Shown here: piece by piece, positions 13,807-33,105 of the stretch
How the letters are laid out: every line of letters starts with the position of its first letter
Position numbering within the stretch: the first letter of the stretch is position 1
Source: Flavobacterium sp. J372
GTDB lineage: Bacteria > Bacteroidota > Bacteroidia > Flavobacteriales > Flavobacteriaceae
Direction of reading: 5' to 3'
Assembly (NCBI RefSeq): GCF_024699965.1
Contig: NZ_JAJOMZ010000004.1
Coordinates: forward strand, 1,610,001-1,674,000
DNA length: 64,000 nt
Notes under the pieces: model-generated
Databases searched by the model: none
What the model was told of the DNA's origin: nothing
The model's input: only the letters and a program-made list of their open reading frames with translations
Position numbers and translations under genes: made by a program

Positions 13807-13820
13807 TGTAATCGATTGCA
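13807..13820 (-). promoter_or_regulatory. LacI-type operator, site 3
   Basis: On the minus strand this reads TGCAATCGATTACA, directly downstream of a perfect TAAATTTG -7 box and 19 bp before the PL1 start codon. It lies 154 bp from site 4, so looping between the two is possible. Confidence 0.72.
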
Positions 13821-13850
13821 CAAATTTAAATTATATTTTTTATCATTCAA
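13821..13850 (-). promoter_or_regulatory. Bacteroidota-type promoter of the PL1 lyase gene
   Basis: Minus-strand TTG (13850-13848), 19-bp spacer, then TAAATTTG (13828-13821), matching the Bacteroidota consensus in sequence and spacing. Operator site 3 follows with no gap. Confidence 0.68.
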
Positions 13851-13952
13851 TATTTTTTAGAAAAATAATTACATACAACATAATAAATATTGATATAATT
13901 TATGTTTATTATAATTTTTGAAAAGATTTAATACAGATTGGTAATGTTTAAG

Positions 13953-13960
13953 TAAGTTTG
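13953..13960 (+). promoter_or_regulatory. -7 element of the 13976 operon
   Basis: TAAGTTTG matches TAnnTTTG exactly and is immediately followed by operator site 4. No well-spaced -33 TTG is seen. The start codon is only 16-19 bp downstream, so the mRNA leader would be very short. Confidence 0.45.
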
Positions 13961-13974
13961 TGTAATCGATTGCG
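13961..13974 (+). promoter_or_regulatory. LacI-type operator, site 4
   Basis: TGTAATCGATTGCG, the inverse orientation of sites 1-2 with one mismatch at the last base. It ends 1 bp before the ATG at 13976. Confidence 0.68.
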
Positions 13975-13975
13975 T

Positions 13976-15882: not shown

Positions 15883-15890
15883 ATTAACAA

Positions 15891-16892
15891 ATGAAGTTGA
15901 AAGTGACATTGTTTACAATACGGGCTATCATAATGATTGCGTGTGTGTCATTTTCTGCTATTGCACAGGATAAGCCAAAAGCTGATGCGTTTTACAAAAT
16001 TGTTGCACACGATGGCTCAGGAGACTATACAACCATACAGGCAGCTATTGATGATTCTAAATCATTCCCTCCGCAGCGTATAACCATTTTTATAAAAAAC
16101 GGCACATACCATGAAAAGGTAAAAGTGCATGAATGGAACCCGGATATTACCCTGATAGGCGAAAGCCGGGAAGGCACAGTCATTACTTACAATGATTATT
16201 TTGCGAAAGTAAATACAGGCATTAATAGTACGTTTCATACCTACACAATGCTTGTGGAAGGTGATGGGTTTATTGCCAGAGACCTTACGATTGTAAACGC
16301 ATCGGGCGATGCAGGGCAGGCGGTGGCATTGTCTGTCCATGCCAATAACGCAATCGTGGTAAACTGTTCCATTCTCGGCAATCAGGATACGCTCTATGTA
16401 AGCGGTAACGGTTTCAGGATCTATTTTGAAAATTGCCTCATAACAGGTACAACCGATTTTATATTTGGCAGTGCCACAGCCTATTTTAAGAGCTGTACAC
16501 TCCATAGCCTCAAGAACTCTTACATCACGGCGGCATCAACCCCGCAGGGCGAAGCATACGGTTTTGTGTTTGATGATTGCCGGCTTACTGCTGAAAGAGG
16601 AATTGATGCCGTGTACCTGGGCCGCCCCTGGAGGCCTTACGCCAAAACGGTGTTTATAAATTGTATGATGGATGCGCATATCAAACCCGAAGGCTGGTAT
16701 AACTGGAATAAACAAGAGGCTGAACGTACTGCTTTTTATGCAGAATATAATTGTTCAGGTACAGGATATAAACCGTCAGATCGGGTAAAATGGTCGTACC
16801 AACTCACCAAAAGGCAGGCAAAAGCGTATACTGTCGAAAATTGCCTGGGTGTTGCTATGGCTGCCAGAATCAAACAACTACAACTGAAATGA
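15891..16892 (+). CDS. CE8 pectinesterase (pectin methylesterase)
   Basis: A 333-residue single-domain pectin methylesterase with an N-terminal signal peptide (ending about residue 25, FSAIAQ). The CE8 motifs are all present: DGSGDYTTIQAAID at the start of the beta-helix, GNQDTLYVSG (acid Asp), TTDFIFGSATAYF (nucleophile Asp) and YLGRPWRPYA (substrate-binding Arg and Trp). It removes methyl groups from homogalacturonan so that pectate lyases can act. It is far smaller than the T9SS-exported CE8 enzyme at 6246, so the two may work at different places (periplasm versus outside). Its stop overlaps the next gene's start by 4 bases (ATGA). Confidence 0.95.
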   Translation: MKLKVTLFTIRAIIMIACVSFSAIAQDKPKADAFYKIVAHDGSGDYTTIQAAIDDSKSFPPQRITIFIKNGTYHEKVKVHEWNPDITLIGESREGTVITYNDYFAKVNTGINSTFHTYTMLVEGDGFIARDLTIVNASGDAGQAVALSVHANNAIVVNCSILGNQDTLYVSGNGFRIYFENCLITGTTDFIFGSATAYFKSCTLHSLKNSYITAASTPQGEAYGFVFDDCRLTAERGIDAVYLGRPWRPYAKTVFINCMMDAHIKPEGWYNWNKQEAERTAFYAEYNCSGTGYKPSDRVKWSYQLTKRQAKAYTVENCLGVAMAARIKQLQLK

Positions 16893-17624
16893 AAAACTAC
16901 TTCTTAATATTCATAATGTTGGCGAGTGTGACTGCCATAGCGCAAAAAGTTACTATTTACGGGATAGGCGATTCTACCATGGCTGATAAAAAGAATCCGT
17001 CTCAAAACCCTGAGCATGGGTGGCTGCAGGTTTTCCCACAGTTTGTTACGGCAGACGTAAAGGTTGTTAACAAAGCAGTAAATGGGCGCAGCACCAGAAA
17101 CTTTATTGAAGAGGGGAGGTGGGATTCCATCACCAGAGTTCTGAAAAAGGGTGATTATGTGTTTATACAATTCGGGCATAATGACGCGAAGGCTGATGAC
17201 CCTAAGCGTTATACCAACCCCCCACACGGCCTATCGCTATAACCTTATGCGGTTTGTAAATGAAACCCGGCAAAGAGGAGCGGTACCTGTGCTATTTTCA
17301 TCTATTGCACGGCGAAAGTTTAATGAACAGGGCGCATTGGTTAGCTCACATGGCGATTATTCCCTTGAGGTGCGGCTTGTGGCAGCTGAACTTAAAGTTC
17401 TTTTTATCGACCTGGAATATTATACTGAGCTTCTTGAGCAGTCATACGGCCCTGAAAAATCGAAAGAGCTGCACCTGCATTTTGCACCCAAAGAGAACCC
17501 TTATTACCCTGAAGGTAAAAAAGACGATACGCATTTGAGCATTAAGGGCGCAACCGAAATAGCGAAAATTGCTGCCCGTGAACTTAAAAAAACTATTCCT
17601 GCGCTAAGGAAATTTTTGAAGTAA
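16889..17624 (+). CDS. CE12 rhamnogalacturonan acetylesterase (frameshifted)
   Basis: A SGNH/GDSL hydrolase of about 244 residues, interrupted by one extra C in the C6 run at 17218-17223. With five C the frame continues RYTNPHTAYRYNLMRFVN. All SGNH blocks are present: GIGDSTMADKK (Ser), GRSTRNFI (Gly), FGHNDAK (Asn) and DDTHLSIKG (Asp, His). A signal peptide ends near residue 18 (VTAIAQ). The family removes acetyl groups from the galacturonate of rhamnogalacturonan I. It is the last gene of the operon and overlaps the pectinesterase gene by 4 bases, which decides the start over any upstream codon. Confidence 0.88.
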
Positions 17625-17766: not shown

Positions 17767-19401
17767 TTATTTTACAACGGAATAAATCACATAGTCATTT
17801 TGCCCGAGCGCGGCTGTACCCATCAGCACCTTAGCGCTATTGGGGAGATTCAGTTTATGCTCCTTTCCGAAATTGACAACCACCGTTACGTCTCTGCCAT
17901 CAAGTGTCCGGGTGTAGGATATCACATTATTTTTAAAGGTAAGTTCTTTGTATATGCCATATTGCAGTACAGGCTCACTGTTGCGCAGCGCGATGAGCTT
18001 TTTGTATTGATGCAGCAATGATGACTTTGCCGGCAACATCTTTTCAGTATTTATGCTTTTATAATTCCCGCTCACCTTGATCCAGGGCTTTCCTGTTGAA
18101 AATCCTGCATATCGGGTGGCATCCCATTGCATAGGGCTGCGCGACTTGTCGCGGTTATGCATGTTTGCTTCTGCAAGCGCCTTTTGTGGAGACAAGCCTT
18201 TCTCAATAGCCAGCTTGTAGTGTGTTTTTCCCTGTATGTCTACAATCTCCTCATAAGATTCAGCAATAATATTTTGCATCCCAATCTCTTCGCCATAATA
18301 AATAAAAGGCACACCTTTAGCCGTGAGCATTAATGCGGCCAAAGCTTCGGCCCGTTTCAGAGAGCCATTAGCCAGCCTGTCAATCATGCGGGGCATATCA
18401 TGGCTGCCAAAGAAAAGGGTAGGGTAGCTGGCCATCTCTTTCTCCATACTTTGCAGTTCATTGTATATTCTCTCTGCTGAAAATTCAGGTATGCTGCCGA
18501 AATTGAAATTAAAGACCACATCTAGCAAGTCTTCACCCTGGTACTGCTTTAGTATATCAATTTTATCACTGCCTATTTCGCCTACAATGAACTTGTCCGG
18601 GTATGCATTTACTGTCGACTTTATCATCCGCATGGCATCTTTCACGCCGGGCTGGTCAATATCATTTTTATGCTGCTGTGCGCCGTCATTTACAGGGTTA
18701 TCAACAGTAATTCCATCTGTCGTGAGAAAGTTGATTACATCGAGCCTGAAGCCGTCTACGCCCATATCAAGCCAAAAGTGCATTATGTTCTTAACTTCAG
18801 CTTTAACCTTTGGATTTTGCCAGTTCAGGTCGGCCATACGCACATCAAATTTGTGGTAATAATATTGGCCGGATTTAGCCTCATATTCCCATGCTGTGCC
18901 GCCAAAGAACGACTCCCAGTTATTGGGCTTATCTTTCCAGATGTAATAATCCCGATAAGGATTGTCTTTAGACTTCTGTGCTTCCTTAAACCATTTGCAT
19001 TCGGTAGAAGTATGGTTCAGCACCATATCCATAATTACTTTTATATCTCTCTTGTGCGCTTCGTTTAAGAAGGTTTTAAAATCGGCCATTGAGCCATATG
19101 TAGGGTCAATGGCGTAGTAATCTGCTACATCGTAGCCATTGTCAACTTTTGGCGATTTTAAAAAGGGGGTAAGCCAGATACCTTTAATACCTAACTTTTG
19201 CAGATAGTCCAGCTTACCCGTAATACCGTTAAAATCTCCGTATCCGTCACCATTGCTGTCAGCATAGCTGGGCATGTATATTTGATAGAATACGGTTTCT
19301 TTCCACCATTTTTTGTCAGGCTGAGTATTTTGAGCCTTCAAAGATATATGAAGCATAAAGCAAATAGCAGAAAGGCAGATTTTAAAGGATTGACTTTTCA
19401 T
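17767..19401 (-). CDS. Secreted GH13 alpha-glucosidase-type enzyme
   Basis: A 544-residue GH13 enzyme with a signal peptide (ending about residue 23, SLKAQ). The (beta/alpha)8 motifs are clear: VFYQIYMPSYADSNGDGYGDFNGI, DMVLNHTS (region I), GFRLDVIN (nucleophile Asp 221), VGEIGS (acid Glu 275) and FFGSHDMPR (Asp 335). The DSNGDGYGDFNGI and QIYMPSF-type start resembles oligo-1,6-glucosidase/alpha-glucosidase subfamilies rather than endo-amylases. Region IV has Ser where most members have Asn before HD. It ends the six-gene minus-strand operon and starts directly after the stop of the unknown 571-residue protein gene. It probably acts on alpha-glucosides in the periplasm; the exact linkage cannot be read from sequence. 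Confidence 0.9.
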   Translation of the reverse strand: MKSQSFKICLSAICFMLHISLKAQNTQPDKKWWKETVFYQIYMPSYADSNGDGYGDFNGITGKLDYLQKLGIKGIWLTPFLKSPKVDNGYDVADYYAIDPTYGSMADFKTFLNEAHKRDIKVIMDMVLNHTSTECKWFKEAQKSKDNPYRDYYIWKDKPNNWESFFGGTAWEYEAKSGQYYYHKFDVRMADLNWQNPKVKAEVKNIMHFWLDMGVDGFRLDVINFLTTDGITVDNPVNDGAQQHKNDIDQPGVKDAMRMIKSTVNAYPDKFIVGEIGSDKIDILKQYQGEDLLDVVFNFNFGSIPEFSAERIYNELQSMEKEMASYPTLFFGSHDMPRMIDRLANGSLKRAEALAALMLTAKGVPFIYYGEEIGMQNIIAESYEEIVDIQGKTHYKLAIEKGLSPQKALAEANMHNRDKSRSPMQWDATRYAGFSTGKPWIKVSGNYKSINTEKMLPAKSSLLHQYKKLIALRNSEPVLQYGIYKELTFKNNVISYTRTLDGRDVTVVVNFGKEHKLNLPNSAKVLMGTAALGQNDYVIYSVVK

Positions 19402-21117
19402 TTATTTTCCTTGTGCGTTGTAATCAACCACCACACCGTTTACAGTCATTTTTGAGCCCTTATAGCTTACTTTACCTTTTGCAGGCACCATCACTACAAC
19501 GGCTGAATGTTTACCCCCGATGTTGATTTTAGTATTGCCCGAAACGTTCCTGGCAATGTATTTACCGGAAACTGTGTCATAAAGGTCTATCTTCTTTTTC
19601 CCAACATTAATGCTGATGGCCTTGCCATCATTATGCGGGTTATAGTACAGGAAAGTAGGATAAGCCTTATCACGGAAGAAATCTGTCGCCAGCAGGTCAA
19701 GCTGCAAGATGCCTTCAATATCAGTCGTTTTGATGATACTGCCAAAAATGCCCACATGCCCACTGCCGTATACGCTTAGCTGCGACTCAGGCGGGTTTTT
19801 GCCGGGTACCCACAACGGGCCATCACCTTGGGCTACAGGGGCTTTCACATGTTTGTAAGTATCCATGTTGGACCGCTCTATGATACCCTCGTAGGCAATT
19901 ACGCCTTTAGATACCTCATTGGCAATCTGCGGGATAGTTTCGTGCTCGTCAGGCATATGCTGCGGATAAAAGAACTTTGAAGCATTGGCGGCATTCAGCA
20001 TCCATTTGCCTATGGCGTTGGCATAACTCTGATCATAACGTACCATAGGTACCAGAGGCCAGGCAGCATCATACGTATTCATCAAAAAGCCGTAGCCCCC
20101 GTGGTCAACCGTGCTTCCTACAGTGCCCGAAATGTCAAAACCATTCCAGTTGCCCACCAGTACGCCCCAGCCTTCGCGGCATATTGCTGTACCGTCAAAA
20201 CTCCAGCGCAGCATTTTTGCCGTATCATATTTCTTACCCTGCTCTGCACTTATCCTCGCAGCGAGGTATGCGCCGAAAGGCATCAGCAGTTCATACGTAG
20301 GGTTTTGGGAATTTGCCTCAAGAGCCGATAATGCTGATAGTGCCCCTTGAAGATACTTTTCATCCCCAAATTTCTTGTATGCCGAATATAGCACCCATGC
20401 ATGGCCTGCTGCCGCATCGGGCTGTATGCAAATGTTGTTTTTCATTGGCGTCATCTTCCCGTAATCAAAGTACGAGTAGTCGTAATTGCCTTTCAGTATT
20501 TTATCAGCCTCGTAAAATTTATTGGCGATTGTCCTGGCCAGGCTATCAAGTCCGGGCTCGTTTGGGTATTTGTCATAAATCGCATAGAATAAAAGGTTGG
20601 GGTACACATCATACCACCAGTCGCGCCCGTAGCCACCACCCAGCAAAGCCACTTCAGGTGCGGTGTTGTTCATCATGATGTTCCAGCCGGTATCTTTATT
20701 AAAGTAGTTTTTCAGCATAGCTACATAGTTGCGGCCATCCTGTTTTGTTTTATCAACACCTACAAGTGTGGCACCAAGAGTTGCACCCATGGTTGCCAGC
20801 GCTTCATGAAACATGCCTTTATTGGCAGTTCCCTGCCTGACGTCACCCATTGCGGTATAGATACCTACAACATCCTGCGGGAAGTTTTTTTGTGATTTGT
20901 CAACCCACACCAATGGCCAGTTTTTGCCTTTCGAGTTAAAATTATACACGGTGGCATCAAAATCTTTAGCCAGTTGGTTGTAATTTATTATACCAAACGG
21001 TTTTGGCAGGTCGGGCATTTGATTTACACGCTCAACCGGCTGTTGTTTAACCTGTGCACTTGCATGAAGGGATATAAGCAAAAAAAGCAGTGCACAGGAC
21101 CTAAAATATTTTTTCAT
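19402..21117 (-). CDS. Unrecognised secreted protein, possible alpha-barrel glycosidase
   Basis: A 571-residue protein with a signal peptide (1-21, ending LHASAQ). I do not recognise the family with confidence. About residues 30-440 look like helix pairs rich in Trp, Tyr and Gly, typical of an (alpha/alpha)6 barrel: GGGYGRDWWYDVYPNLLFYAIYD, AAGHAWVLYSAYKKFGD and STVDHGGYGFLMNTYDAAWP carry conserved-looking acids and aromatics. The last 110 residues look like a small beta-sandwich (KKKIDLYDTVSGKYIARNV). This is the outline of several glycoside hydrolase families. It sits between an MFS transporter and a GH13 enzyme in a SusC/SusD/GH130 operon, so an extracytoplasmic carbohydrate-active enzyme is likely (inference). 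A binding protein cannot be excluded. Confidence 0.6.
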   Translation of the reverse strand: MKKYFRSCALLFLLISLHASAQVKQQPVERVNQMPDLPKPFGIINYNQLAKDFDATVYNFNSKGKNWPLVWVDKSQKNFPQDVVGIYTAMGDVRQGTANKGMFHEALATMGATLGATLVGVDKTKQDGRNYVAMLKNYFNKDTGWNIMMNNTAPEVALLGGGYGRDWWYDVYPNLLFYAIYDKYPNEPGLDSLARTIANKFYEADKILKGNYDYSYFDYGKMTPMKNNICIQPDAAAGHAWVLYSAYKKFGDEKYLQGALSALSALEANSQNPTYELLMPFGAYLAARISAEQGKKYDTAKMLRWSFDGTAICREGWGVLVGNWNGFDISGTVGSTVDHGGYGFLMNTYDAAWPLVPMVRYDQSYANAIGKWMLNAANASKFFYPQHMPDEHETIPQIANEVSKGVIAYEGIIERSNMDTYKHVKAPVAQGDGPLWVPGKNPPESQLSVYGSGHVGIFGSIIKTTDIEGILQLDLLATDFFRDKAYPTFLYYNPHNDGKAISINVGKKKIDLYDTVSGKYIARNVSGNTKINIGGKHSAVVVMVPAKGKVSYKGSKMTVNGVVVDYNAQGK

Positions 21118-21133
21118 AATGAAATGTTAATTC

Positions 21134-22426
21134 TTAAACGATGTTGGCCGCGGTTTCTTCTAAAACTTTGGTGTCTTCAATGTCTTCTTTTTCCGGAAAG
21201 ATGTTATTGCCTTCTGCAATAATTTTTTTACTGATGGAAATAGAGCAAAGCTGCAAAAGTGCAATTATGCCTATTGCGTATCGTAGTGCAAAATCTTCTG
21301 ACACGGCAAAGTACAACACTAAAAAAGTTCCTGCCCCAAGCAATCTCCCGGCGTAAAGTCCTGATTCATGGTTAAGTATGTATGCAAACTCTCCACGTTT
21401 TTCTATTCTTGAAACGATATCTATAACCCGTAGCTGGATAGGAAAGTAGGCAAGGTCCATCAATGGTTTTGCAATAAGCAGCAGCAACAGGAATACAATT
21501 ACGCTGGTCTGGTCAAACCATAACCCGTTGAGGCAGGCGCCTATAGCAAAAAGGATAAGGCCGGCAGAGAAGGTCTTAACACGATCTGATGGTTTGGAAA
21601 ACCTGCCTATGAAATAAATAATGATTGCTGCCAGTATTGCACCAATTGACTGTGCATTGCCAAGTGCTCCTTCTTCACCTAAAAGCTTAAATATCAGCAT
21701 TGCAGGGGCTGTAACTAGAAATCCCTGCGCCAGGCCTTTGAACATTGCCAGCGAGAGTAATTTGTACCATAGCGGGTGAAATTTAAAAAAAATATACTTT
21801 TTCTGTACCGGATTTTTAAAATCTCCCCTAAAGCAAACCACTGATGCTAAGAATGTTATAATAAACACAACACCTGTAATGATGAGATAGGCATTGTGTT
21901 TATCTGTCTCTCCGTTTTTTGATTGAATGAACCAGCCGATAGCAGCCGGGACAATGATTGCGATGATTGTATATATAAATGTTTCAAGCCCGTAGTAATA
22001 GTTGCGGTTATCATCATTCGTCACTGCTACAGCGAGATAGTCACGATTAGACCAGTATAGCCCAAATGATAGCCCCATAATTATACCCGCCACACCGATA
22101 CCGAACATATCAAGGGTTTTCAGCGACATCATGATGATCATGGAGACACCGCTAAGCATCATGCCAATTGAATATAATGTTTTTATATTCATGTGTTTAA
22201 GCAGAAAACCGTTTACCAGAAATGTTATTGGAATACCTGAATAAATAGTAAGCTGGTACAACACTACCTTACTGGTATCATTAGAATTACGCATAATATA
22301 TGCTGCGACAAATATATCTATGACGGGTAAAACAAGTGCATATACTAAGTTAGTAAGCACCAGTATTTTAAAATTGTGCGACTGACTTTTAAAATGATTA
22401 ACTTCAGTCCGTAATTTATTCAGCAT
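21134..22426 (-). CDS. MFS transporter
   Basis: A 430-residue inner-membrane protein with about 12 hydrophobic segments, starting ILVLTNLVYALVLPVIDIFVAAYI, and a charged C-terminal tail. It resembles major facilitator superfamily carriers; a specific subfamily is not identified. It overlaps the GH130 gene by one base (TGATG on the minus strand) and lies 16 bp before the 571-residue protein gene. The coupling with a cytoplasmic GH130 enzyme suggests that it brings the disaccharide or oligosaccharide substrate into the cell. Confidence 0.85.
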   Translation of the reverse strand: MLNKLRTEVNHFKSQSHNFKILVLTNLVYALVLPVIDIFVAAYIMRNSNDTSKVVLYQLTIYSGIPITFLVNGFLLKHMNIKTLYSIGMMLSGVSMIIMMSLKTLDMFGIGVAGIIMGLSFGLYWSNRDYLAVAVTNDDNRNYYYGLETFIYTIIAIIVPAAIGWFIQSKNGETDKHNAYLIITGVVFIITFLASVVCFRGDFKNPVQKKYIFFKFHPLWYKLLSLAMFKGLAQGFLVTAPAMLIFKLLGEEGALGNAQSIGAILAAIIIYFIGRFSKPSDRVKTFSAGLILFAIGACLNGLWFDQTSVIVFLLLLLIAKPLMDLAYFPIQLRVIDIVSRIEKRGEFAYILNHESGLYAGRLLGAGTFLVLYFAVSEDFALRYAIGIIALLQLCSISISKKIIAEGNNIFPEKEDIEDTKVLEETAANIV

Positions 22427-23463
22427 CAGTTATATTTTAAAAGTGAAAGTATTTCCTTGATAGAGAATTTCGCACCGCATACAAACTCGTCAGCCGCGCC
22501 ATAATACATAGTTATTGTATCACCATCAGGCTCAACAATATGCCCATTGGTAAATACTACATTACCGAAGAACCCGCTCAACTCGTACTCTGCTGACGGA
22601 ATCATTATCGGCTCTTCTGTTCTAGCCAATACCTTATACGGATCTTCCAGATCAAGCAGCAGTGCACCGAGACAGTACATATGGTTATCATTGGCGCCAT
22701 GGTAAATTTCCAGCCAGCCCTTTTCTGTTTTTACAGGTGCTGCGCCGGCGCCAATCCGCTTACTGTCCCACAGGCCTTTGCGTGTAGTGGCAATGCATTT
22801 ATGGTTACCCCAGTGTACACCATCCGGCGACGAAGCTATCCAAATGTAATTACCGCCAATATCTACACTGCTTGGCCGGTGCAAGGCATAGAAAAGCCCA
22901 TTTATCTTTTCTTCAAAAATGGCGCAGTCTTTATTATGAGCAGGGAAGATAAGGCCTTTGTTTTCAAAAGTTTTCCAGTCTTTTGTAGTGCGCAGGCCAA
23001 CTGCCACACCTAAATCAGATACCGAAGTAAATGTAAGGTAGTAAGTATCATTGATTTTAGCCACGCGGCAGTCTTCAATGCCGAACGTTTCGTGACGGCC
23101 TTCACCCACTAGTGTACCGTAACCTTCAGGCTCGTAGAAGTTTTTACCATCATCACTACACAAAAGGCGCAGGTGAGAAAGTGTTGTCAGGTAATCACTC
23201 CCTTTATAATTAATAACCCTTGCATCATCTGCAATAAGTTCCGGATCTGTTTTTTCAATTTCAATTATATTTATGTTTCCGGTTTCAGTAAGTACCGGAA
23301 AGGAAATAGTTGTATCATGCTGTTCCGGCCGTTCGGCTACCCTCACAATAATCCAGGTTTTGTCCTGAAACTCAAACACGCCGGGGTTTAAAAGGCAGGT
23401 AATCGTTAAGCCATCCCTGCTTGGTGTAAGGTCTGCAGGAGATAATAGGGGGATTTTGCGCAA
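22426..23463 (-). CDS. GH130 mannoside phosphorylase or mannosidase
   Basis: A 345-residue five-bladed beta-propeller enzyme of family GH130, with no signal peptide, so cytoplasmic. The family motif HETFGIEDCRVAKI carries the catalytic Asp (131), and LLNPGVFEF, LHRPSSVDIGGNYIWIASSPDG and YHGANDNHMYCLGALLLD are typical. GH130 covers phosphorylases of beta-mannosides (for example mannosyl-glucose or beta-1,2-mannobiose) and a few hydrolases. The His-Arg pair in LHRP could bind phosphate, favouring a phosphorylase, but this is not decisive. The gene is coupled to the MFS gene, fitting import followed by phosphorolysis. A strong hairpin separates it from susD. Confidence 0.88.
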   Translation of the reverse strand: MRKIPLLSPADLTPSRDGLTITCLLNPGVFEFQDKTWIIVRVAERPEQHDTTISFPVLTETGNINIIEIEKTDPELIADDARVINYKGSDYLTTLSHLRLLCSDDGKNFYEPEGYGTLVGEGRHETFGIEDCRVAKINDTYYLTFTSVSDLGVAVGLRTTKDWKTFENKGLIFPAHNKDCAIFEEKINGLFYALHRPSSVDIGGNYIWIASSPDGVHWGNHKCIATTRKGLWDSKRIGAGAAPVKTEKGWLEIYHGANDNHMYCLGALLLDLEDPYKVLARTEEPIMIPSAEYELSGFFGNVVFTNGHIVEPDGDTITMYYGAADEFVCGAKFSIKEILSLLKYN

Positions 23464-23516
23464 AGCGTTTTGCGATGTCTTTCATTCGTAATTTATTGTA
23501 GGTTTTATTTGAATTA

Positions 23517-23544
23517 CCCGGGCCCCGCCTTAGCATGGCCCGGG
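23517..23544 (-). promoter_or_regulatory. Intercistronic hairpin between susD and GH130 gene
   Basis: Perfect GC-only stem CCCGGGCC / GGCCCGGG with a 12-base loop in the 103-bp gap. No T-run follows on the minus strand, so it looks like an RNA-stabilising or partial attenuating hairpin rather than a terminator. Confidence 0.55.
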
Positions 23545-23566
23545 ACTAACCCAAACTAACTGTAAT

Positions 23567-25039
23567 TTAATAATCGTTTTGCGTAAGCGTACCCGCAGAA
23601 GCATCAATTTCTGATTGTGGAATAGGGTAGAGCATATGCTTAGGCTGGAAGTTTTTACCGTGTGCCTGGAGAACCTGCTGCGCAATGCCCCATCGCTTCA
23701 GGTCAAGCAAACGTTGGTTTTCAAACCCGAGCTCAACCCTCCGTTCATGTATAAGCCATGCTTTTACCTGTGCAGGGTCATTGCTAGCAGGCCTGTCCGG
23801 TAGCGTACCTGCAGGTGGTATATTACCATTTGCATCAACACCATTACGCGCCCTTTGCCTTATCTGGTTAATTATTGCAATGGCACCTGCCTGGTCTCCC
23901 TGCTCGTGGAGCGCTTCAGCCTTCCAAAGCAATACATCAGCATAACGGATGTATATTTTATTATTTGGCGCTTCATCATCGCCAAGGTTAGCGCCATTAA
24001 GGCTTCCCAGCATTTTATTTATCCATTTATTAGGAACATTAACACTGTAGAGTAATCTTGGGTCATTTGGCTCGAACTCGTCAATAAAACTTTGAGTTGG
24101 TGCAAAGAAGCCCCATCCTAGCGGTGCCATCATACCGTTTCCTCTTTTAGGAACCGCATTTCGCTGATGATCAAAAGCAAACACTACTTCATTATCGGTA
24201 AACTCAGTCGTGAAGCTGTCAAAGTAGTTGGCGTTAAGACTATAACCCAAGGCAGCTACCTGGTCAACCAACGGGCCTACGGCAGCCCAGTTTTCAGTAT
24301 ATAATTCCGATTTAGCTAATAGTGCAATAGCAGCCGCTTTAGATACCCTCCATTTTTCACTGTCAGATGAGTATTTGCTGTTTGGCAATAAGTTGATAGC
24401 TGTAGTTAAATCTTCCTTAACTTGATCCCAGATTATAGCTTTGTCAACACGTACAGCTACATCAAATGCCTCTTGATAACTCTCTACCGGGCGAACAATT
24501 AATGGCACATCACCAAAATTTGTAACCAACGAGAAATATAAGTATGACCTGAGAAATAGAGCCTCGGCCAATATTTGTTCTTTGCGGTCTGTAGAAATAC
24601 CTGTAACAGCCTCAATATTATCTTTTGTTAGATGCGAAATGGCTACATTCAGCCTTTTAATGCCTTCATAATTATATACCCACAAACCATTAGGGCCCGC
24701 ATTGCTTGCTGTAAAGGTGAAATTATCTATCTGGTCCATCCATGGCTGGTCACCGTCCGGATTCCACTTCTTTTGCATATCATCTGATGCTATGTCCTGG
24801 AGAATATAATCATTTTGGAATACGAGTCCGTTAGTCCAGTCCCAGTTGCCCAAAAGGTTGATGCTGTTTGATAGCATATCATAAGAAGAGCGTACAGAAT
24901 TTTCTAAAATCGTTATAGTAGGAGTATTATCTGCCTGCTCTTTCGGAATTGCACCTACCGGTGGTTTATCAAGTTCATCCTGGCAACCAACTACGGTAAT
25001 TATACCCAATAGAAGGCTAATTTTTATAAAATTTTTCAT
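23567..25039 (-). CDS. SusD/RagB-family glycan-binding lipoprotein
   Basis: A 490-residue lipoprotein with a signal and lipobox ending TVVGC. SusD features are EQILAEALFLRSYLYFSLVTNFGDVPLI (SusD-type helix), KIYIRYADVLLWKAEALHEQGD and the C-terminal LYPIPQSEID. It begins 11 bp after the susC stop. It should bind the same glycan as the adjacent SusC at the cell surface. Shorter than the pectin-locus SusD (598). Confidence 0.95.
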   Translation of the reverse strand: MKNFIKISLLLGIITVVGCQDELDKPPVGAIPKEQADNTPTITILENSVRSSYDMLSNSINLLGNWDWTNGLVFQNDYILQDIASDDMQKKWNPDGDQPWMDQIDNFTFTASNAGPNGLWVYNYEGIKRLNVAISHLTKDNIEAVTGISTDRKEQILAEALFLRSYLYFSLVTNFGDVPLIVRPVESYQEAFDVAVRVDKAIIWDQVKEDLTTAINLLPNSKYSSDSEKWRVSKAAAIALLAKSELYTENWAAVGPLVDQVAALGYSLNANYFDSFTTEFTDNEVVFAFDHQRNAVPKRGNGMMAPLGWGFFAPTQSFIDEFEPNDPRLLYSVNVPNKWINKMLGSLNGANLGDDEAPNNKIYIRYADVLLWKAEALHEQGDQAGAIAIINQIRQRARNGVDANGNIPPAGTLPDRPASNDPAQVKAWLIHERRVELGFENQRLLDLKRWGIAQQVLQAHGKNFQPKHMLYPIPQSEIDASAGTLTQNDY

Positions 25040-25050
25040 AATCCTTTTTT

Positions 25051-28000
25051 TTAGAGTTTTATTTTAGCACCAAACATTATTGCTGCTGTCTGTGGATAAG
25101 TCCCTTGGTCGACACGATTTGTAGATTCGGGGTCAAGTCCAGTATAATCCGTCCAAGTAAGCAGATTCTGCCCTGACGCATATATACGCAGGTAGTCGAT
25201 ATATGGTAGTGATTTATTGAAAGTATAACCAATTTCGATATTTTTAAGCCTTAAGTAAGAAGCATCTTCCACAAAAACACTATAATATCTCGCTCCTCTT
25301 GCAGTATCTTCAAATGTAAGCCTTGGCATAGTATTACTTGTGCCTTCACCTGACCAACTACCGAGTACTGCCGTTGTAGAATTGAATCGGCGTCCGTCAT
25401 AATCCAGAATTTGTTTTTGGTCATTATACCTATCAACATCTTCAACGCCCTGAAACAGAAACGAAATGTCAAAGTTTTTGTATGATGCATTGAATGCAAG
25501 CCCATATGTTATTTTAGGAACAGGGTTACCAATGTAAGTACGGTCATCATCATTTATTTCTCCATCGCCATTGATATCTTTAAATCTGATATCTCCGGGG
25601 ACAGCACCATTTGCATTCGAATACAGGTGAGCGTCAATCTCTGCTTGATTTTGATAAATACCATCAAATTGCTGGCCAAAGAAAGCATTTAACGGCTGCC
25701 CGGTGATGCTCCTTGTACGCCCGCCATCATCCTCTATGAGAGGCACGTTTCCGTGCAGTTTAGTCACTTCATTATCAAGTGTAGCCAGATTAGCATTCAC
25801 ACCATACTTAAATTCGTTATCATTATTCTGAAAATTAAGCCCGAATTCAAATCCTTTATTCACAACAGATCCTGCATTTACATATGTTTCCTCAATAACC
25901 CCGACAGACAATCTTGGCAAACGTATTGATAGTAATATATCTTCAGTCTCTTTTCGGAAGTAATCTGCACTAAAATTCAGTTTGTTATCAAAGAACCCAA
26001 AGTCAAGACCTACATTGGTTTGCGTTGTTGTTTCCCATTTGAGGTCAGGATTCCCATACCTTATTACCTGCGTGCCCAAAGGAGTGTTTGTTTGCACAAA
26101 AGTTAGATAAGCTCCATCAGGAATTTCCTGATTTCCGGATTGCCCCCAGCTAGCTCTAAGCTTAAGGTTTGATAACCATGTTACGTTTTCCATAAACTTC
26201 TCATTCGTAGCAATCCAGTTGGCGCCGAATGACGGGAAATACCCCCATTTATTGTTAGGCCCAAATCTTGATGATGCATCTGCCCTAACGGTTGCAGTTA
26301 CGTTGTATCTGCTATCAAATCCATAATTGACAGAGCCAAAGAAGGAAAGTAAAGTCCAACTTTTGTCATCACTGCCATTTGATGGTGGCGTGTATAGCTC
26401 GCCATCCGTACGATTACCACCATAGCCTAAATATCTAAAGGCATCAGAGTCATTGTCAAAACCTGACCTTGCACCAACAATTTCCGAAAATCTATTTTTT
26501 ATGAATTCGTGACCTACAAGTAAATTTACATCATGAACGTCTCCCAGCGTCTTTATATAGTTAACTGTATTTGACCATGTAAAAGTTACATCCTGCGCGC
26601 GGCTTTCAGACAAGCTGTTAGGACGGTTATTGCGGCCTAATCCTAAGCCAAACAATGGGTCGTCAGGGTTGCTGATATTATCATCACCATAATTTTCGTA
26701 GAAAGCTTTATTGTGGAAAAACCTCACATCCATACCCAGATTTGTACGTACTTTTAAAGCTTTATTAAGAAATGTGCCTTCAAGGAAAGTATTACCAAAT
26801 GCCTGGAAAGTTTCCCTTACATCATCAGTAAAATGTACGATGGCGAGAGGGTTTGATGAGAATTCGTACCTTGTAAGGTATCCTACATCTCGTACGGGAC
26901 CTGTATAAAAAGGTAGGTCTGTATAGGGGTTACGAACACTGTAAGTAGGGTCACTCGGGTCTTTATATACTCCTAATACGGGTGGACGGATAAGGGCATG
27001 TCTAATAACGCCAGGCGCATCCCCACTTGATGAAATCCTGTCTTGGCTTTGGAATGTGATTTGCATATTAACACCGGCAGTAAACATTTCATTAAGCTTA
27101 CTGTTTACGTTGGTACGGAAGTTTACGCGTTTGTATTGGTCATTATCCTCCGTAACCACGCCGTTCATGCCATAGTATCCACCAGATATAAGATAGCTTG
27201 TCTTATCATTTGCTCCACTTGCAGTAATTTGTACATTTCTTGATATACCTTGTGTAAATAGTTCATCAAGCCAATCGGTATCGGCAAGGTTGAGGGTCGT
27301 CCTGTCAGAAGTATATAAGTTTGGCGTTGTATAAGTGTTATTCCATGATTGTTCCATTACGTTCATATACTGTTCAGCATTTAGCATATCCGGGAGGTTT
27401 TGCACATAATGTATACCTGTAAAGAAGTCAACATCAAAGCTTGACTTGCCCTTAGCACCAAGTTTAGTGGTGATAATAACTACACCACCGGCAGCTCTTG
27501 AACCATATATGGCTGTAGCAGAAGCATCTTTTAAAACTGTCATAGACTCTACGTCTGCCTGGTTAAGAAACGTAATATCACGTGTTGGAGTGCCATCTAC
27601 TACATACAATACTCTGTTGTCTCCTATAGTGCCTTCGCCGCGGATGCGTATTACGCTGCCATCTCCGGGCGCACCTGTATTTGCAGCTACAAATACACCT
27701 GCTACCTGCCCTTGAAGTGCCTGTGCAACATCAGGTATCCTTGTTTTTTCAAGGTTATTGAGGTTCACCTGAGAAACGGCTCCGGTAATAGAACGTTTGC
27801 TTTGGCCTACATAACCTGTTACAACAACTTCACTTAGCTGTTGCGAATCTTCCTGAAGTATAACATTTATTTCTGTCCTGCCGTTTACGGCTACTTCCTG
27901 CGATGTAAAACCCATAAAACTGTAAACTAATACAGCATTGGTGTCAACATTGTCAATTGTATATCTTCCGTCTAAATCTGTAACTATACTAGTAGTTGTT

Positions 28001-28134
28001 CCTTTTACCATTACTGTGGCCTGTGGCAGCGGCCCCGTAGCGTCAGAAACGGTTCCGGTTACAGTTTGGGCATAAAGTGTGCTTCCGGACATAAATGTCA
28101 GTATAAGAAGCAGGCATTTAATTAATCTGTTCAT
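25051..28134 (-). CDS. SusC/RagA-family TonB-dependent receptor
   Basis: A complete 1027-residue SusC protein. Order: signal peptide (1-22), CarboxypepD_reg-like beta-sandwich (about 23-105, VTGTVSDATGPLPQATVMVKG), TonB-box region (LSEVVVTGYV), plug domain (about 115-230, with the LYVVDGTPTRDI and DASATAIYGSRAAGGVVIITT motifs) and a 22-strand-type barrel ending MFGAKIKL. It imports oligosaccharides with the SusD partner. It is the first gene of the six-gene minus-strand operon, and its 5' region carries paired AGTGTACACT sites, the likely target of the hybrid regulator encoded upstream. Confidence 0.96.
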   Translation of the reverse strand: MNRLIKCLLLILTFMSGSTLYAQTVTGTVSDATGPLPQATVMVKGTTTSIVTDLDGRYTIDNVDTNAVLVYSFMGFTSQEVAVNGRTEINVILQEDSQQLSEVVVTGYVGQSKRSITGAVSQVNLNNLEKTRIPDVAQALQGQVAGVFVAANTGAPGDGSVIRIRGEGTIGDNRVLYVVDGTPTRDITFLNQADVESMTVLKDASATAIYGSRAAGGVVIITTKLGAKGKSSFDVDFFTGIHYVQNLPDMLNAEQYMNVMEQSWNNTYTTPNLYTSDRTTLNLADTDWLDELFTQGISRNVQITASGANDKTSYLISGGYYGMNGVVTEDNDQYKRVNFRTNVNSKLNEMFTAGVNMQITFQSQDRISSSGDAPGVIRHALIRPPVLGVYKDPSDPTYSVRNPYTDLPFYTGPVRDVGYLTRYEFSSNPLAIVHFTDDVRETFQAFGNTFLEGTFLNKALKVRTNLGMDVRFFHNKAFYENYGDDNISNPDDPLFGLGLGRNNRPNSLSESRAQDVTFTWSNTVNYIKTLGDVHDVNLLVGHEFIKNRFSEIVGARSGFDNDSDAFRYLGYGGNRTDGELYTPPSNGSDDKSWTLLSFFGSVNYGFDSRYNVTATVRADASSRFGPNNKWGYFPSFGANWIATNEKFMENVTWLSNLKLRASWGQSGNQEIPDGAYLTFVQTNTPLGTQVIRYGNPDLKWETTTQTNVGLDFGFFDNKLNFSADYFRKETEDILLSIRLPRLSVGVIEETYVNAGSVVNKGFEFGLNFQNNDNEFKYGVNANLATLDNEVTKLHGNVPLIEDDGGRTRSITGQPLNAFFGQQFDGIYQNQAEIDAHLYSNANGAVPGDIRFKDINGDGEINDDDRTYIGNPVPKITYGLAFNASYKNFDISFLFQGVEDVDRYNDQKQILDYDGRRFNSTTAVLGSWSGEGTSNTMPRLTFEDTARGARYYSVFVEDASYLRLKNIEIGYTFNKSLPYIDYLRIYASGQNLLTWTDYTGLDPESTNRVDQGTYPQTAAIMFGAKIKL

Positions 28135-28256
28135 GGTTGCTAGGCAGTTTTGTTAAGGGTTAGTAAAATTTTTCTCATTTTGATAATTTAATGTTTTGAT
28201 GGTTGTTAATTGTTGTTACGAAAACGTTATAAATTTATAAACACTGCATAAAAAGG

Positions 28257-28287
28257 AGTGTACACTATTTATCCAAAAGTGTACACT
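28257..28287 (-). promoter_or_regulatory. Paired AGTGTACACT sites upstream of susC
   Basis: Two identical 10-bp palindromes AGTGTACACT at 28257-28266 and 28278-28287, exactly 21 bp apart (two helical turns). They lie 123-153 bp upstream of susC and just after the regulator gene. The spacing suits the two DNA contacts of an AraC-type domain. I saw no clear TAnnTTTG between them and susC. Confidence 0.6.
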
Positions 28288-28315
28288 GTTTTATAACTTG
28301 CTTAAAATTAATGTT

Positions 28316-31300
28316 TTAAATTTTGCTTGACTTACCTCTGTAATTAAGCTGGTAATTTTTAGGAGTAGTGTTATATACCTTTTTAAACTCTCTGTAAAAG
28401 TATGAGCGGTTATTAAATCCTGACTTATAGCATACCTCAGATACGGTCAATTTATTTTTACGTAATAATTCTGCAGCGTGTTTAAGACGGATAGTACGTA
28501 TAAGATCTCCCGGGGATATTGAGAAGGACTCTTTAATTTTACGATAGAATTGTGAAGAACTTAAACCCAGCTCTTTCTCTAAATACGCTGAATCCAGATT
28601 CTCATTTTCTATATTGCTACGAACTAAATCAATTACTGATTTTATAAAAGCCTTTTGATCATTGTTAACGGGAATAGCCGAAAGATTGTCAAGAAGAGTA
28701 TCCTGTGTAAAATGTTTCAATACCAGCTCTTTTTGTTCCAGTAGCTTTTGTATCCTCACTAGTAAGTGCTTAGGATAAAAAGGTTTCGGAATGTAAGAAT
28801 CGGCACCGCTCTCAATACCCTCTATTCTGTGTATTACCGAATTTTTAGCAGTAAGCATTATAAATGGTATATGGCAGGTATTAATATCTGTCTTTACTTT
28901 TTTACACAGCTCTACGCCATCCATTACCGGCATCATTACATCGCTTACAATAATATCCGGTAAATCTGAATTTATAATTTCTAATGCTTCAGCGCCATTA
29001 TAGCTACTGATAATGGTGTATTTCTCTGACAGAAGGTCTTTCAGGTAGGCATGTATCTCACTCTCGTCTTCAACAATCAATATTTTTTGCTTATCATTTT
29101 CAAGGGCATTAAGTGCCGAAATCTTATCCGGATCAGGGTCAGCTTTATCAGTTTTTTCCTCTAAAATGTTTTTAAGGTGCTGGGAAATAACTACAGGCGT
29201 AATTTCGGTATCAATTTCTTTTTCGCTAAAAGCAGCTTTTTCACAAGGGATGAGTACAGTAAATACTGTTTCTACATTAGCCACACTGCTAACCAGTATT
29301 TCGCCCCTAAGCACTGTTACCAGCCTTTTTACATATGCCAGGCCAATCCCGGCCCTGAACATTTCGGTATCAGACTGCACCTCGCTGTCAGATAAAAAGA
29401 AACGGTCAAATAGCGAGTCCTGCTTTTCCTTTGAGATGCCCACACCTGTGTTCCTTATAGTAATGTTCAATGTTTTGAAGTCCTTCTCTTCAATGCTGCA
29501 TCTCATCTGTATCTCACCATTGGCCGGAGTATACTTGAATGCATTAGACATAAGGTTGAAAATTATTTTCTCTAGCTTGTCTTTATCATACCATCCTTGC
29601 AGTGCGGGTGGTATATCAAGATTATAGTTTATGTTTTTATCCAAAACCCAGTCGTCAAACAATTCGGCAATTTGCTCCAGCAGGTTTACAAGGTCAAAAT
29701 GCCTTACCGTATTTTCGAGGTAATCATACTCTGCTTTTCTGAATTCCAGTAATTGTTGTGTAAGGAAAAGAAGCCTTGATGCATTTCTCTGAATCATGTT
29801 TATGAATTTAAGGTTCTTCCCCTCAAGGGCAACAGTTTCAGAGAGTTTTTGTGCCGGACCTACAATGAGTGTCAATGGTGTTAAAAACTCATGTGCTATG
29901 TTTGTAAAAAAGCTTAGCCTGTTTTCATGCAGTTCCTCCTCTTTTTTCCTTATCATGATGTTTTGCCGGAGTGACTGTTGTTTTAAATTATAGCTTCGTA
30001 TGAATAATAAGAATACCAATGCCAGGGCTAAATACATTACCAGCGCAAGGTTAGACTGCCACCATACAGGTTTTACGGTAATGTTAAGAGCGTGAACAGG
30101 TTTGCTCCATATCCCTTCACTGTTACTCCATTTGAGCCATAACGAATATTTCCCTTTGGGTACATTGGTAAATGAGATAACCTGGCGATTGCCTATATTG
30201 TTCCAGTCTTTATCAAAACCCTCCAGTTGATAGGCATATTGACACTTTTCAGGATTTGTATAAGTGAGCGCTTTCAGGTGTATATTGAAAAAGTTTTGAT
30301 TATGTTTTAATGTAAGAGATGGGTATGTTGAAGAGTTATGCGAGATTACGAGTCCCTGGTAGTAAGGCACCGATTGGTTTTGTCCGCTAATTTCATCAAT
30401 GAGCAGGCTTGGCACTTCAGCAGAGGCATATATATTTTCAGGTAAGAAGTGGTTAAAACCCTTTATTCCGCCCATAAATATACGGCCTGTTTCAGGATCA
30501 CTGTAATAGGCACCATCAGCAAATTCATTGTTTTGCAGGCCTTCGTATCTTGTATAGTTAGAGAATCTTTGGTGTGCAATCTCAAGATTAGATAACCCGT
30601 AATTGGTGCTAATCCACAAGTTAGCGTCTTTTACAGGTACAATGCCATGAATCGTGTTATTGGGTAACCCTTCTTTGTCTGTAAAGCTTTTAAATGTTGC
30701 TTTGCCATCATTGTTTATATTCTTAAGCAGGTTAAGCCCGTAGCTGGTGCCTATCCACAGCCTGTTTTTAGAATCAGTAACAAGACACAATATGTCATTA
30801 CTGGAAAGGCTTTGGGAATTGCCAGTAATATTTTTATATACATTAAAGATGCCTGTAGTTTTATTAAAAAGATTTAGCCCGCCAAGCCTTGTACCTATCC
30901 ATAGCTCCTTATCATTTTTAGGAATTATTGAATAAATAATGTTGCTGCTAATAGAGTTACTGCCATTTCCTCCGGCAGTATATTTTGAAAAATCTGTCAG
31001 CTTTATATTCCCGTTCTCCTTTATTATTTTTAAGGATATCATTCCGTAGCCGTTGGTACCTACCCAAAGTATATCATTATTATCCCGGTAAATAGAGTAA
31101 ACAGACTTGAAATAACCGCATTTTTCTGCACCATCAACATCTTTCCAGCTTATAAGATTATCACTTTCTGAATCATAAATCGTTAATCCTTCTCCATCGG
31201 TACCTATAAATACCAAGTTATCTTTACCTTTTTGCAGGGCATATATCGAATTATTAATTCTGCTATTGTTTTCATTGAAATGTGTATATAAAAGCTTTCT

Positions 31301-32490
31301 GTCAGGATAAAGGTAGAAATCAACCGGAAGCCTGAATAAGCCACTGCCTTTGGTACCCAACCAGAAACCCGAGGAATCTTTTAGAAATGATCTTACAATT
31401 CCGCTATGGAGTTCCGGAATCTGTGTTCTTGATATCAGATTGAATGATTTCTTTTGCGGAAATATCTTTATTAATCCGTCGCCATCAGTTCCTGCCCATA
31501 ATATATTTTCATTAGGGTGTAATAGTAGTGAAGTTATATTATGGCCTTCAAGATGTTTAAGCCATGGTGTTGATACTTTATCACCATTGCTGTTTATTAT
31601 GGCATATCCTGATTTACCCAATACTACCAAACCTTCTGGCACATCACCAATAATGGTTGAAACAGATGCTGTAGCCTCATGTACGTTATTCTTATAGGCT
31701 GATTGTAAAAAAGTTTTGCCAGAAGTCCCAATAATAAATATTTTATCATCGCCAATTTTACTGAAAGCACGCACGTCATCCCGCAGCTTTTGCACATCTG
31801 ATATGACTTTGTTGCCCTCACCAGCCATTTTTATCGCTACAGAATATAATGTATTATCATTATATAAAATCAATAGTTTTCCTGAATCCAAAAATTCAAG
31901 TTTTTGCACTGATTTATTAGGGAGCTTTTGTGAACTGAAACGGCTGAACTTACCGTTAGCGAAATAACCTATTCCCCAATCCTGTACCGCACAATAAACA
32001 TTTTTTTTTGTGTCGAAGGCCATGTTAAACTGTGATTCTGTAACAGGAGGCTTATTCTCTGAATTAAAGTAAAAGCGCCTGAACTTATTGGCTTGTTTAT
32101 TATAGCAATTAATGCCATGCATAGTCAATATCCAGATTTGGCCAGCGTTGTCCTCGCCAATTTTAAGTATAACCTGATTGCTAAGCGAATTTTCATCAGG
32201 CTCTGGCCTGAATTTTTAAATTCAGTTCCATCAAAACGGTTAAGTCCATCCCATGTACCTATCCAGATAAGATTTTGCGAATCCTGAAAGATGCAGTTTA
32301 CAGAACTGTTTGAAAGGCCTGTCGCGTTATCTAACTGTTCTATCGAATATTTTGCATCAGTAACGGGCGGTATTATATTTTGTGTAGAAGTCAGAGTATT
32401 ATGATACTCAGCAGACAGATTTTCAGGCTTGCCGGTACAGCAGATTAACACTAAAGTTAAAAAAGCCGTGAGTAAAATCTTTGTTTTCAA
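28316..32490 (-). CDS. Hybrid two-component system sensor/regulator (one frameshift)
   Basis: About 1391 residues after repair. One base appears missing in the T5 run at 32213-32217 (A5 on the coding strand); adding it joins GTEFKK to FRPEPDENSL and so to the rest. Order: signal or lipobox region (ending LICCTG), periplasmic two-propeller sensor with reg_prop repeats (LIWIGTWDGLNRF, LWIGTRLGGLNLF, LWIGTSYGLNLL), Y_Y_Y domain, one membrane helix (VMYLALALVFLLFI), histidine kinase (IAHEFLTPL, His near 867; ATPase boxes NLMSNAFKYTP and GIGLAYVKRL), receiver (SDVMMP, Asp near 1184) and AraC-type DNA-binding domain. Such proteins sense periplasmic oligosaccharides and switch on the adjacent sus genes. 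The AGTGTACACT pair just downstream is a likely target. Confidence 0.93.
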
Positions 32491-32708: not shown

Positions 32709-33105
32709 TGGTGGAGCCGCCGAGAATCGAACTCGGGTCCAAACAGGTAATCAAAGAGCTTTCTACATGCTTAGTTTCCGCTTGGTTTTTCGATGTTGTG
32801 CAAGGCCGGAGACTGCCACACAACACTTAGCTCCTTAAGTCTCGAAGCCTCCGCGGAGCGAAGAAACTTCCAGGTCTATTTTTACGGTTCTCCTAATCGA
32901 AACGCCACAGACCAGGGCTTTTCAGGAGAATCCCGCCTCCCTGCCTTGCAGGGACGAGGCTTTTCTTACTATAATTCAGAATTAAGCAGCAAGAGCGTAG
33001 TTATTTTCGCCGTTTAAAAGTTTTGGGCAATGATATACGGGAACAGCCCAATTTCCCGGCATGCTTACTGTTCAATCAGGCCTGCTGTCAAAACCAGTCG
33101 ACCCC
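32709..33105 (-). ncRNA. ssrA: Transfer-messenger RNA (tmRNA)
   Basis: About 397 nt. The 5' end reads GGGGTCGACTGGTTTTGACA and the 3' end has the tRNA-like T-arm (GGGTCCAAA/TTCGATTC type) ending GGCTCCACCA, with CCA encoded. The two ends pair as an acceptor stem. The tag frame at 33011-32982 gives GENNYALAA followed by TAA, so the peptide added to stalled proteins is A-GENNYALAA, close to other Bacteroidota tags. tmRNA with SmpB frees stalled ribosomes and marks the products for proteolysis. The apparent ORF in the opposite direction is not a gene. Confidence 0.95.

What the first reader, a model, noticed from the sequence alone, without database searches (positions are those of the whole stretch)
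17767..32490. SusC/SusD locus pairing a cytoplasmic GH130 enzyme with a secreted GH13 and an unrecognised 571-residue protein
The operon order is SusC, SusD, GH130, MFS, unknown protein, GH13, with a hybrid sensor upstream. GH130 enzymes act on beta-mannosides; GH13 acts on alpha-glucosides. A glycan containing both, or a route from an alpha-glucoside to a mannoside phosphorylase, is not one I can name. The unknown protein has a signal peptide, the look of an (alpha/alpha)6 barrel and a C-terminal beta-sandwich, and could be a new glycoside hydrolase family that opens this substrate.
Basis: partly seen in the sequence, partly recalled or inferred. Interest (0 to 1): 0.72.

Follow-up and report, generated by a model that had tools for sequence, protein, structure and literature searches.

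The report
Beta-1,2-mannoside locus with unnamed glycosidase
A Flavobacterium-like genome carries a gene set, found in the same order in many relatives, that likely feeds on sugar chains containing beta-1,2-linked mannose; it includes a protein, likely secreted, of a large unnamed family predicted to be a new kind of sugar-cutting enzyme.

Summary
It is not a chance neighbourhood: among 80 loci fetched through U571 alone, 78 hold GH130 and 76 keep GH130>MFS>U571 in order. GH13 is an optional add-on (38 of 80).

The puzzling pairing mostly dissolves. The GH130 keeps the lysine tied to beta-1,2-mannosides and the basic residues lost in GH130 hydrolases, so it is a predicted beta-1,2-mannoside phosphorylase. 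In two relatives from one genus, U571 sits beside GH130s that pass NCBI's cut-off for beta-1,2-mannosidase. Distant U571s lie beside other GH130s, some with ABC importers, GH2 or GH94-like genes.

U571 matches no Pfam or NCBIfam family above cut-off and no PDB sequence. A confident AlphaFold model (pLDDT 91.9) is an (alpha/alpha)6 barrel plus beta-sandwich, nearest by fold to GH76 alpha-mannanases; profile comparison shows no homology to GH76 or GH88. Four carboxylates (E105, E276, E410, D432) are invariant wherever aligned. Some relatives carry LamG, CBM9 or type IX secretion domains.

Best reading: a new glycoside hydrolase family supplying beta-1,2-mannosyl units. The cleaved bond is unproven.

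The parts
28316..32490 (-). Hybrid two-component sensor (propeller, Y_Y_Y, HisKA, HATPase, receiver, AraC-type HTH), split by a frameshift near 32125-32128
   Evidence: Two ORFs; Pfam domains in each. Searched as two pieces; not joined.
25051..28134 (-). SusC/RagA TonB-linked outer-membrane transporter
   Evidence: TIGR04056 852 bits, cut-off 368
23567..25039 (-). SusD-like outer-membrane lipoprotein
   Evidence: PF07980 101.7 bits, PF14322 76.4 bits; lipobox-like VVGC read from the sequence
22426..23463 (-). GH130, predicted cytoplasmic beta-1,2-mannoside phosphorylase
   Evidence: PF04041 168.2 bits; nearest solved structures Uhgb_MS mannoside synthase, then Lin0857 and two beta-1,2-mannoside phosphorylases; K178, R196, R236, H255 in 77 of 77 locus GH130s, K245 K in 75 and R in 2; K178 aligned by hhalign with the conserved Lys of hydrolase-type GH130s
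21134..22426 (-). MFS transporter, predicted inner-membrane oligosaccharide importer
   Evidence: PF07690 49.4 bits; present in 76 of 80 loci between GH130 and U571
19402..21117 (-). U571: predicted secreted (alpha/alpha)6 glycosidase of an unnamed family
17767..19401 (-). GH13 with signal peptide (read by eye), oligo-1,6-glucosidase-like; accessory
   Evidence: PF00128 451 bits; nearest solved structure oligo-1,6-glucosidase 1uok; motifs carrying D221, E275, D335 in 39 of 39

Best explanation
This is a SusC/SusD sugar-import locus that likely serves glycans containing beta-1,2-linked mannose, in which the unnamed 571-residue protein (U571) is predicted to be a secreted glycoside hydrolase of a new family that would cut the imported chains into short mannosides for a GH130 predicted to be a cytoplasmic phosphorylase. 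Shown here: the gene order, its conservation, the tie of U571 to two classes of GH130, the lack of a match to any known family in the libraries searched, and the predicted fold. Inferred: SusC/SusD bring oligosaccharides into the periplasm; U571 (signal peptide, no sorting tail) cuts an internal mannosidic bond there, probably by a pair of carboxylates among E105, E276, E410 and D432; in Flavobacterium the GH13 first removes alpha-glucosyl caps; the MFS protein carries beta-1,2-mannobiose-size products across the inner membrane; GH130 and phosphate turn them into mannose-1-phosphate. In the variant of two relatives, a secreted beta-1,2-mannosidase and a ROK sugar kinase would do the last step by hydrolysis and phosphorylation instead.
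Confidence: 0.5

Rival explanations
1. U571 cuts the alpha-mannosidic or other backbone that bears beta-1,2-mannose caps (as in Candida mannan), and is thus a GH76-like alpha-mannanase rather than a beta-1,2-mannanase.
Against: Profile comparison with GH76 gives probability 1.4%. The adjacent Asp pair mutated in GH76 structures (D136/D137 and D163, D164 in entry titles) is R165-D166 here, and D166 is Ser/Thr in the two newest branches. No GH76 match in the own genome; no GH92 or GH76 domain was found in the locus proteins scanned.
Confidence: 0.2
2. U571 is an epimerase or isomerase on mannosides, as cellobiose 2-epimerase partners GH130 in beta-1,4-mannan use.
Against: U571 carries a signal peptide (by eye), and long versions carry extracellular sorting domains. 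No histidine is conserved at 97% or more across 184 sequences, and H454 is Trp in 92 of 93 rows of one branch; AGE enzymes need catalytic histidines (recalled).
Confidence: 0.12
3. The locus targets an alpha-glucosylated heteroglycan in which GH13 does the main cutting; GH130 only salvages a rare mannoside and U571 is a binding or polysaccharide-lyase-type protein.
Against: GH13 is missing from 42 of 80 loci while U571 and, but for one, GH130 stay, and no GH13 was found among the L106 proteins scanned.
Confidence: 0.1
4. The GH130 is a biosynthetic or stress-related mannoside synthase and the import locus was assembled around it for another sugar.
For: Closest solved relative is called a mannoside synthase. 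Lone copies of the close GH130 lie beside superoxide dismutase, peroxidase or catalase genes.
Against: Does not explain why distant GH130s, including those at beta-1,2-mannosidase equivalog level, accompany U571.
Confidence: 0.08

Closest known systems
BT3780 and the yeast-mannan locus MAN-PUL2 of Bacteroides thetaiotaomicron (PMC4599007, passages)
   Same: Polysaccharide utilisation locus with a GH130 acting on beta-1,2-mannosides; the specificity lysine is shared; two U571 relatives carry equivalog-level members of this enzyme.
   Different: The window's GH130 has no signal peptide by eye and keeps the basic residues, so is predicted to be a phosphorylase. No GH92 or GH76 found in the window's locus. 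U571 is not mentioned in the passages read.
Teth514_1788/1789 and Lin0857 beta-1,2-mannoside phosphorylases (PMC4264767, passages; PMC8950772, table passages)
   Same: Characterised beta-1,2-mannoside phosphorylases; in the alignments printed (Lin0857 and 9fj8, a 1,2-beta-oligomannan phosphorylase) the NKD lysine and the aligned basic residues agree.
   Different: The Teth514 genes lie in an ABC-transporter cluster with GH5 and GT4 genes, read by the authors as GDP-mannose supply.
Uhgb_MS mixed-linkage mannoside synthase (PDB 9eqq, 9erg, 9erh)
   Same: Best PDB sequence match of the window's GH130, 504 bits, full length.
   Different: From an unknown human gut bacterium by its PDB title; its gene context is not known to me.
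GH76 alpha-1,6-mannanases
   Same: (alpha/alpha)6 barrel, top structural match of U571.
   Different: No sequence or profile homology; the adjacent Asp pair is not kept.

Membership tests
GH130 beta-1,2-mannoside phosphorylase (window GH130) | GH130 domain above Pfam cut-off | tested here: met
   PF04041 168.2 bits, cut-off 26
GH130 beta-1,2-mannoside phosphorylase (window GH130) | Lysine that sets beta-1,2 specificity (K199 in BT3780) | tested here: met
   K178 is K in 77 of 77 locus GH130s and is aligned by hhalign (83 against 8 sequences) with the K of SKSG. BT3780 itself was not aligned; the match to K199 rests on spacing: D-K 57 in 4 of 8, K-x 28 in 7 of 8, x-E 41 in 6 of 8 hydrolase-type rows. 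The plain MAFFT alignment placed a gap there and put other residues, not this K, in the column.
GH130 beta-1,2-mannoside phosphorylase (window GH130) | Basic residues that hold phosphate | tested here: met
   R196, R236, H255 in 77 of 77, K245 K/R in 77 of 77; in the 5 hydrolase-type rows these are a gap, Leu, Asn and Leu/Ile/Trp. Which three bind phosphate was not mapped.
GH130 beta-1,2-mannoside phosphorylase (window GH130) | NCBIfam equivalog cut-off | tested here: not met
   NF050092 391.6 of 550; NF052550 194.9 of 450
GH130 beta-1,2-mannoside phosphorylase (window GH130) | Phosphorolysis of beta-1,2-mannobiose | not testable with these tools
   needs purified enzyme
BT3780-type beta-1,2-mannosidase (relatives L106, L237) | NCBIfam NF058598 equivalog cut-off 550 bits | tested here: met
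   641.8 (L106), 666.8 and 642.3 (L237); the window's GH130 scores 67.8 and is not a member
GH76 (U571) | Match to PF03663 or profile homology | tested here: not met
   No PF03663 hit at E 0.1; hhalign probability 1.4% against 5 GH76 sequences
GH76 (U571) | Two adjacent catalytic Asp | tested here: not met
   R165-D166 in 28 of 28 short-type rows; the long type has D165-D166 in 33 of 36; D166 is Ser/Thr in 119 of 120 rows of the other two branches, a gap in one. Based on sequence position, not on superposed coordinates.
GH76 (U571) | (alpha/alpha)6 barrel fold | tested here: met
GH88/GH105 (U571) | Match to PF07470 or profile homology | tested here: not met
   No hit; hhalign probability 8.9% against 14 sequences
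AGE-type epimerase (U571) | Conserved catalytic histidines (recalled) | tested here: not met
   No His at 97% conservation in 184 rows; H454 is W in 92 of 93 rows of one branch
D-glucuronyl C5-epimerase PF06662 (U571) | Score above curated cut-off | tested here: not met
   15.9 of 23.3 bits over 33 residues
GH13 (window 19401-17767) | Alpha-amylase domain with catalytic triad | tested here: met
   PF00128 451 bits; motifs with D221, E275, D335 in 39 of 39
Starch locus (Sus) | SusD equivalog NF033071 | tested here: not met
   45.3 of 725 bits
Beta-1,4-mannan locus | GH5, GH26 or GH113 mannanase in the locus | tested here: not met
   None among the eight locus ORFs scanned

The most novel reading that the evidence does not exclude
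U571 founds a new glycoside hydrolase family of thousands of proteins across Bacteroidota, Ignavibacteria-type bacteria and beyond that depolymerises beta-1,2-mannan, the missing extracytoplasmic step ahead of GH130 beta-1,2-mannoside phosphorylases and mannosidases; its spread would imply a common, little-noticed environmental beta-1,2-mannan, in Flavobacterium an alpha-glucosylated one.
Probability: 0.38. Interest if true: 0.78.

Novelty: new variant of a known kind. Interest (0 to 1): 0.55.

Why it matters
The environmental polymer that feeds GH130 beta-1,2-mannoside phosphorylases is poorly known: in the passages read, BT3780-type enzymes are tied to Candida mannan (PMC4599007), no source was identified for the Thermoanaerobacter enzymes (PMC4264767), and Leishmania mannogen is a beta-1,2-mannan (abstract in a listing, PMC3290622). 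A conserved import locus with an unnamed, likely secreted partner gives a concrete enzyme and organisms with which to find the substrate. The partner family is large (3934, 2537 and 1556 proteins at E 0.001 in three searches that scored about 8000 candidates each; overlaps not removed) and matches no Pfam or NCBIfam model above cut-off in the members scanned (domains outside the U571 region apart).

Tried and rejected
Sequence searches of U571 against Pfam, NCBIfam and PDB gave nothing above cut-off for the U571 region. A first AlphaFold job on 30 close rows was poor (pLDDT 74.8) and was superseded by one on 64 rows. Foldseek's GH127 top hits were set aside because TM-scores were 0.24-0.38 with rmsd of about 15. 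A wrong open reading frame was taken for the hydrolase-type GH130s and corrected; the MAFFT alignment there did not bring the specificity lysines together, which a profile alignment and residue spacings settled. D166, first taken as a catalytic candidate from 64 rows, was dropped when 120 more rows showed Ser/Thr there. GH76 was rejected as a family for U571. The absence of any other fold family from the list is not evidence against it.

Literature: eight searches were answered. I found no paper on this locus or on U571 in those listings; passages only were read of PMC8626586, PMC8950772, PMC4599007, PMC4264767 and PMC4572689. CAZy could not be searched, so 'new family' means absent from Pfam, NCBIfam and PDB sequences here.

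Homologues of c12 (an unnamed 818-residue partner) and c19 were sought in the own genome: c12 none, c19 only a weak partial match.

Full report
Observation. The only correction is that the sensor gene is split by a frameshift near 32125-32128. The own genome (3.53 Mb held, 95% complete) has one U571 and two GH130 genes.

Is it more than a chance neighbourhood? Loci were collected by U571 alone. A scan of genome contigs found 343 stretches encoding a relative; the best 80 were kept. By tblastn with the window's proteins, 80 of 80 hold U571, 78 GH130, 76 MFS, 75 SusD, 76 SusC and 38 GH13. GH130, MFS and U571 keep order and strand in 76 of 80; all five core genes are present in 72 of 80. The two loci without GH130 are L054 (a 5.4-kb contig on which U571 starts at base 3) and L063, where U571 follows what look by eye like GH16 and peroxidase genes. 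These 80 are related (63-78% identity; Flavobacterium, Ferruginibacter, Chitinophaga, Pedobacter and others by record title), so they are not 80 independent events.

Independent branches. A search of 395 genomes of the phylum found 21 with a match, two of them short and weak (G021, G212). Beside the 571-type there is a long type (about 1050 aa; 36-40% identity to the window) with PKD, LamG and type IX sorting domains (source names such as Melioribacteraceae, Ignavibacteriales, Balneolaceae). Of the 18 loci that I fetched around these matches, 15 show a GH130 by tblastn and one more (L106) a divergent GH130; L107 and L115 show none in the stretch held. Two of the 18 (L117, L118) are the same loci as L080 and L043 among the 80. 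L104, a long-type locus, carries a GH2 gene (PF22666 197 bits; mannosidase Ig domains below cut-off), a GH94-like gene and a MalK-type ABC gene; relatives of these lie in several others by BLAST cluster. In L108 and L109, SusC, SusD, long U571, a multi-LamG protein and GH130 (56% identity) are followed by an ABC solute-binding gene and, in L108, a permease gene. So the inner-membrane importer changes (MFS or ABC) while U571 and GH130 stay. This is the pattern expected if an oligosaccharide made by U571 is carried intact to a cytoplasmic GH130 (inference).

The branch that fixes the linkage. In L106 (its U571 is identical to a Mucilaginibacter rigui protein) the locus is GH130, SusC, SusD, ROK kinase, MFS, U571. 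That GH130 has a signal peptide by eye and scores 641.8 bits against NCBIfam NF058598, beta-1,2-mannosidase, cut-off 550. A second genome of the genus (L237) has two such GH130s (666.8 and 642.3 bits) around U571 and c12, with ROK and MFS genes matched by BLAST to those of L106. Only 2 of 100 genomes searched in that genus had this U571. A beta-1,2-mannosidase plus sugar kinase in place of a cytoplasmic phosphorylase is a different route to the same end (inference).

GH130 of the window. Its best PDB matches are Uhgb_MS (504 bits), Lin0857 (290.7), a 1,2-beta-oligomannan phosphorylase (175.3) and a beta-1,2-mannobiose phosphorylase (169). PMC4599007 (passages) states that a lysine, K199 in BT3780, sets beta-1,2 specificity and that three basic residues mark phosphorylases. 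In an alignment of 77 locus GH130s with 5 hydrolase-type and 14 further GH130s, the window's K178 is K in 77 of 77 and 14 of 14; R196, R236 and H255 are invariant in the 77 and K245 is K in 75 and R in 2; in the 5 hydrolase-type rows R196, R236, H255 and K245 are a gap, Leu, Asn and Leu/Ile/Trp. That alignment did not put K178 against the hydrolases' SKSG lysine. A profile alignment did (hhalign, 83 against 8 sequences, probability 99.95), and the SKSG lysine has the spacing of BT3780 D142-K199 (57) in 4 of 8 rows, K199-E227 (28) in 7 of 8 and E227-E268 (41) in 6 of 8. Against this, the protein misses both NCBI phosphorylase cut-offs.

GH13. Closest to oligo-1,6-glucosidases (1uok, 404 bits); the triad motifs are intact in 39 of 39. 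The Val after the nucleophile (GFRxDVIN, 39 of 39) is a recalled mark of alpha-1,6 specificity. Because GH13 is absent from 42 of 80 loci, alpha-glucose is at most a decoration of the substrate where GH13 is present.

What tells against. The close GH130 (56% or more) occurs in 23 of 395 genomes, of which 10 also have U571 (in G379 the two are at different places). I fetched 17 neighbourhoods of GH130 copies away from U571 (12 of the 13 genomes with GH130 and no U571, second copies in G316 and G379, and three genomes with 38-44% identity). None of the 17 shows a U571; L163, L164, L167 and L170 hold other SusC-like genes. Several lie beside superoxide dismutase, peroxidase or catalase genes. So this GH130 has a life outside the locus.

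Verdict. The bond that U571 cuts, and whether it is a hydrolase at all, are untested.

Noticed in passing
L012:5121-7592, L039:266-2740, L237:4830-7337: c12, an 818-residue protein (signal peptide by eye) with no Pfam or NCBIfam match in the copies scanned, sits in 12 of 81 U571 loci and beside U571 in L237 (61.8-72.7% identity in the eight rows shown): a second unnamed candidate enzyme of this pathway.
   Followed up: partly
L038:6121-7449, L104:4104-5381: c19, an unnamed 440-residue protein, recurs beside U571 and GH130 in 3 of 81 near loci and in several long-type loci; in L104:1-1743 a related region lies in one ORF with a glycosyltransferase group 1 domain.
   Followed up: partly
L160, L161, L162, L169, L175, L176 (superoxide dismutase); L163, L167 (peroxidase); L168 (catalase): Lone copies of the close GH130 lie near oxidative-stress genes; in six Flavobacterium-type loci they are beside the c7-c11 genes, which flank the full U571 locus in other species. 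Pfam was run on L160, L163 and L168 only; the rest by BLAST cluster.
   Followed up: partly
window 1-17624: A pectin-use island: pectate lyase with CBM77, pectinesterase domains in two ORFs, DUF4861, an esterase-like gene and a GH88/GH105 match at 3927-5015.
   Followed up: no
window 37558-51436: A second SusC/SusD-type locus (SusC by eye) with PF10091 (as in beta-1,2-glucanases, recalled), GH3, GH97 and GH43: a possible beta-1,2-glucan neighbour to the beta-1,2-mannoside locus.
   Followed up: no
window 32709-33105: tmRNA gene on the minus strand, tag GENNYALAA, just upstream of the sensor gene.
   Followed up: no
window 17151-17242, 32125-32128, 34572-35637: Several genes look split into overlapping or abutting frames, which could be assembly errors or real frameshifts.
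   Followed up: no
L130:8912-10486 (own genome C4): A second, longer GH130 (524 aa) lies beside an MFS gene elsewhere in the genome.
   Followed up: no
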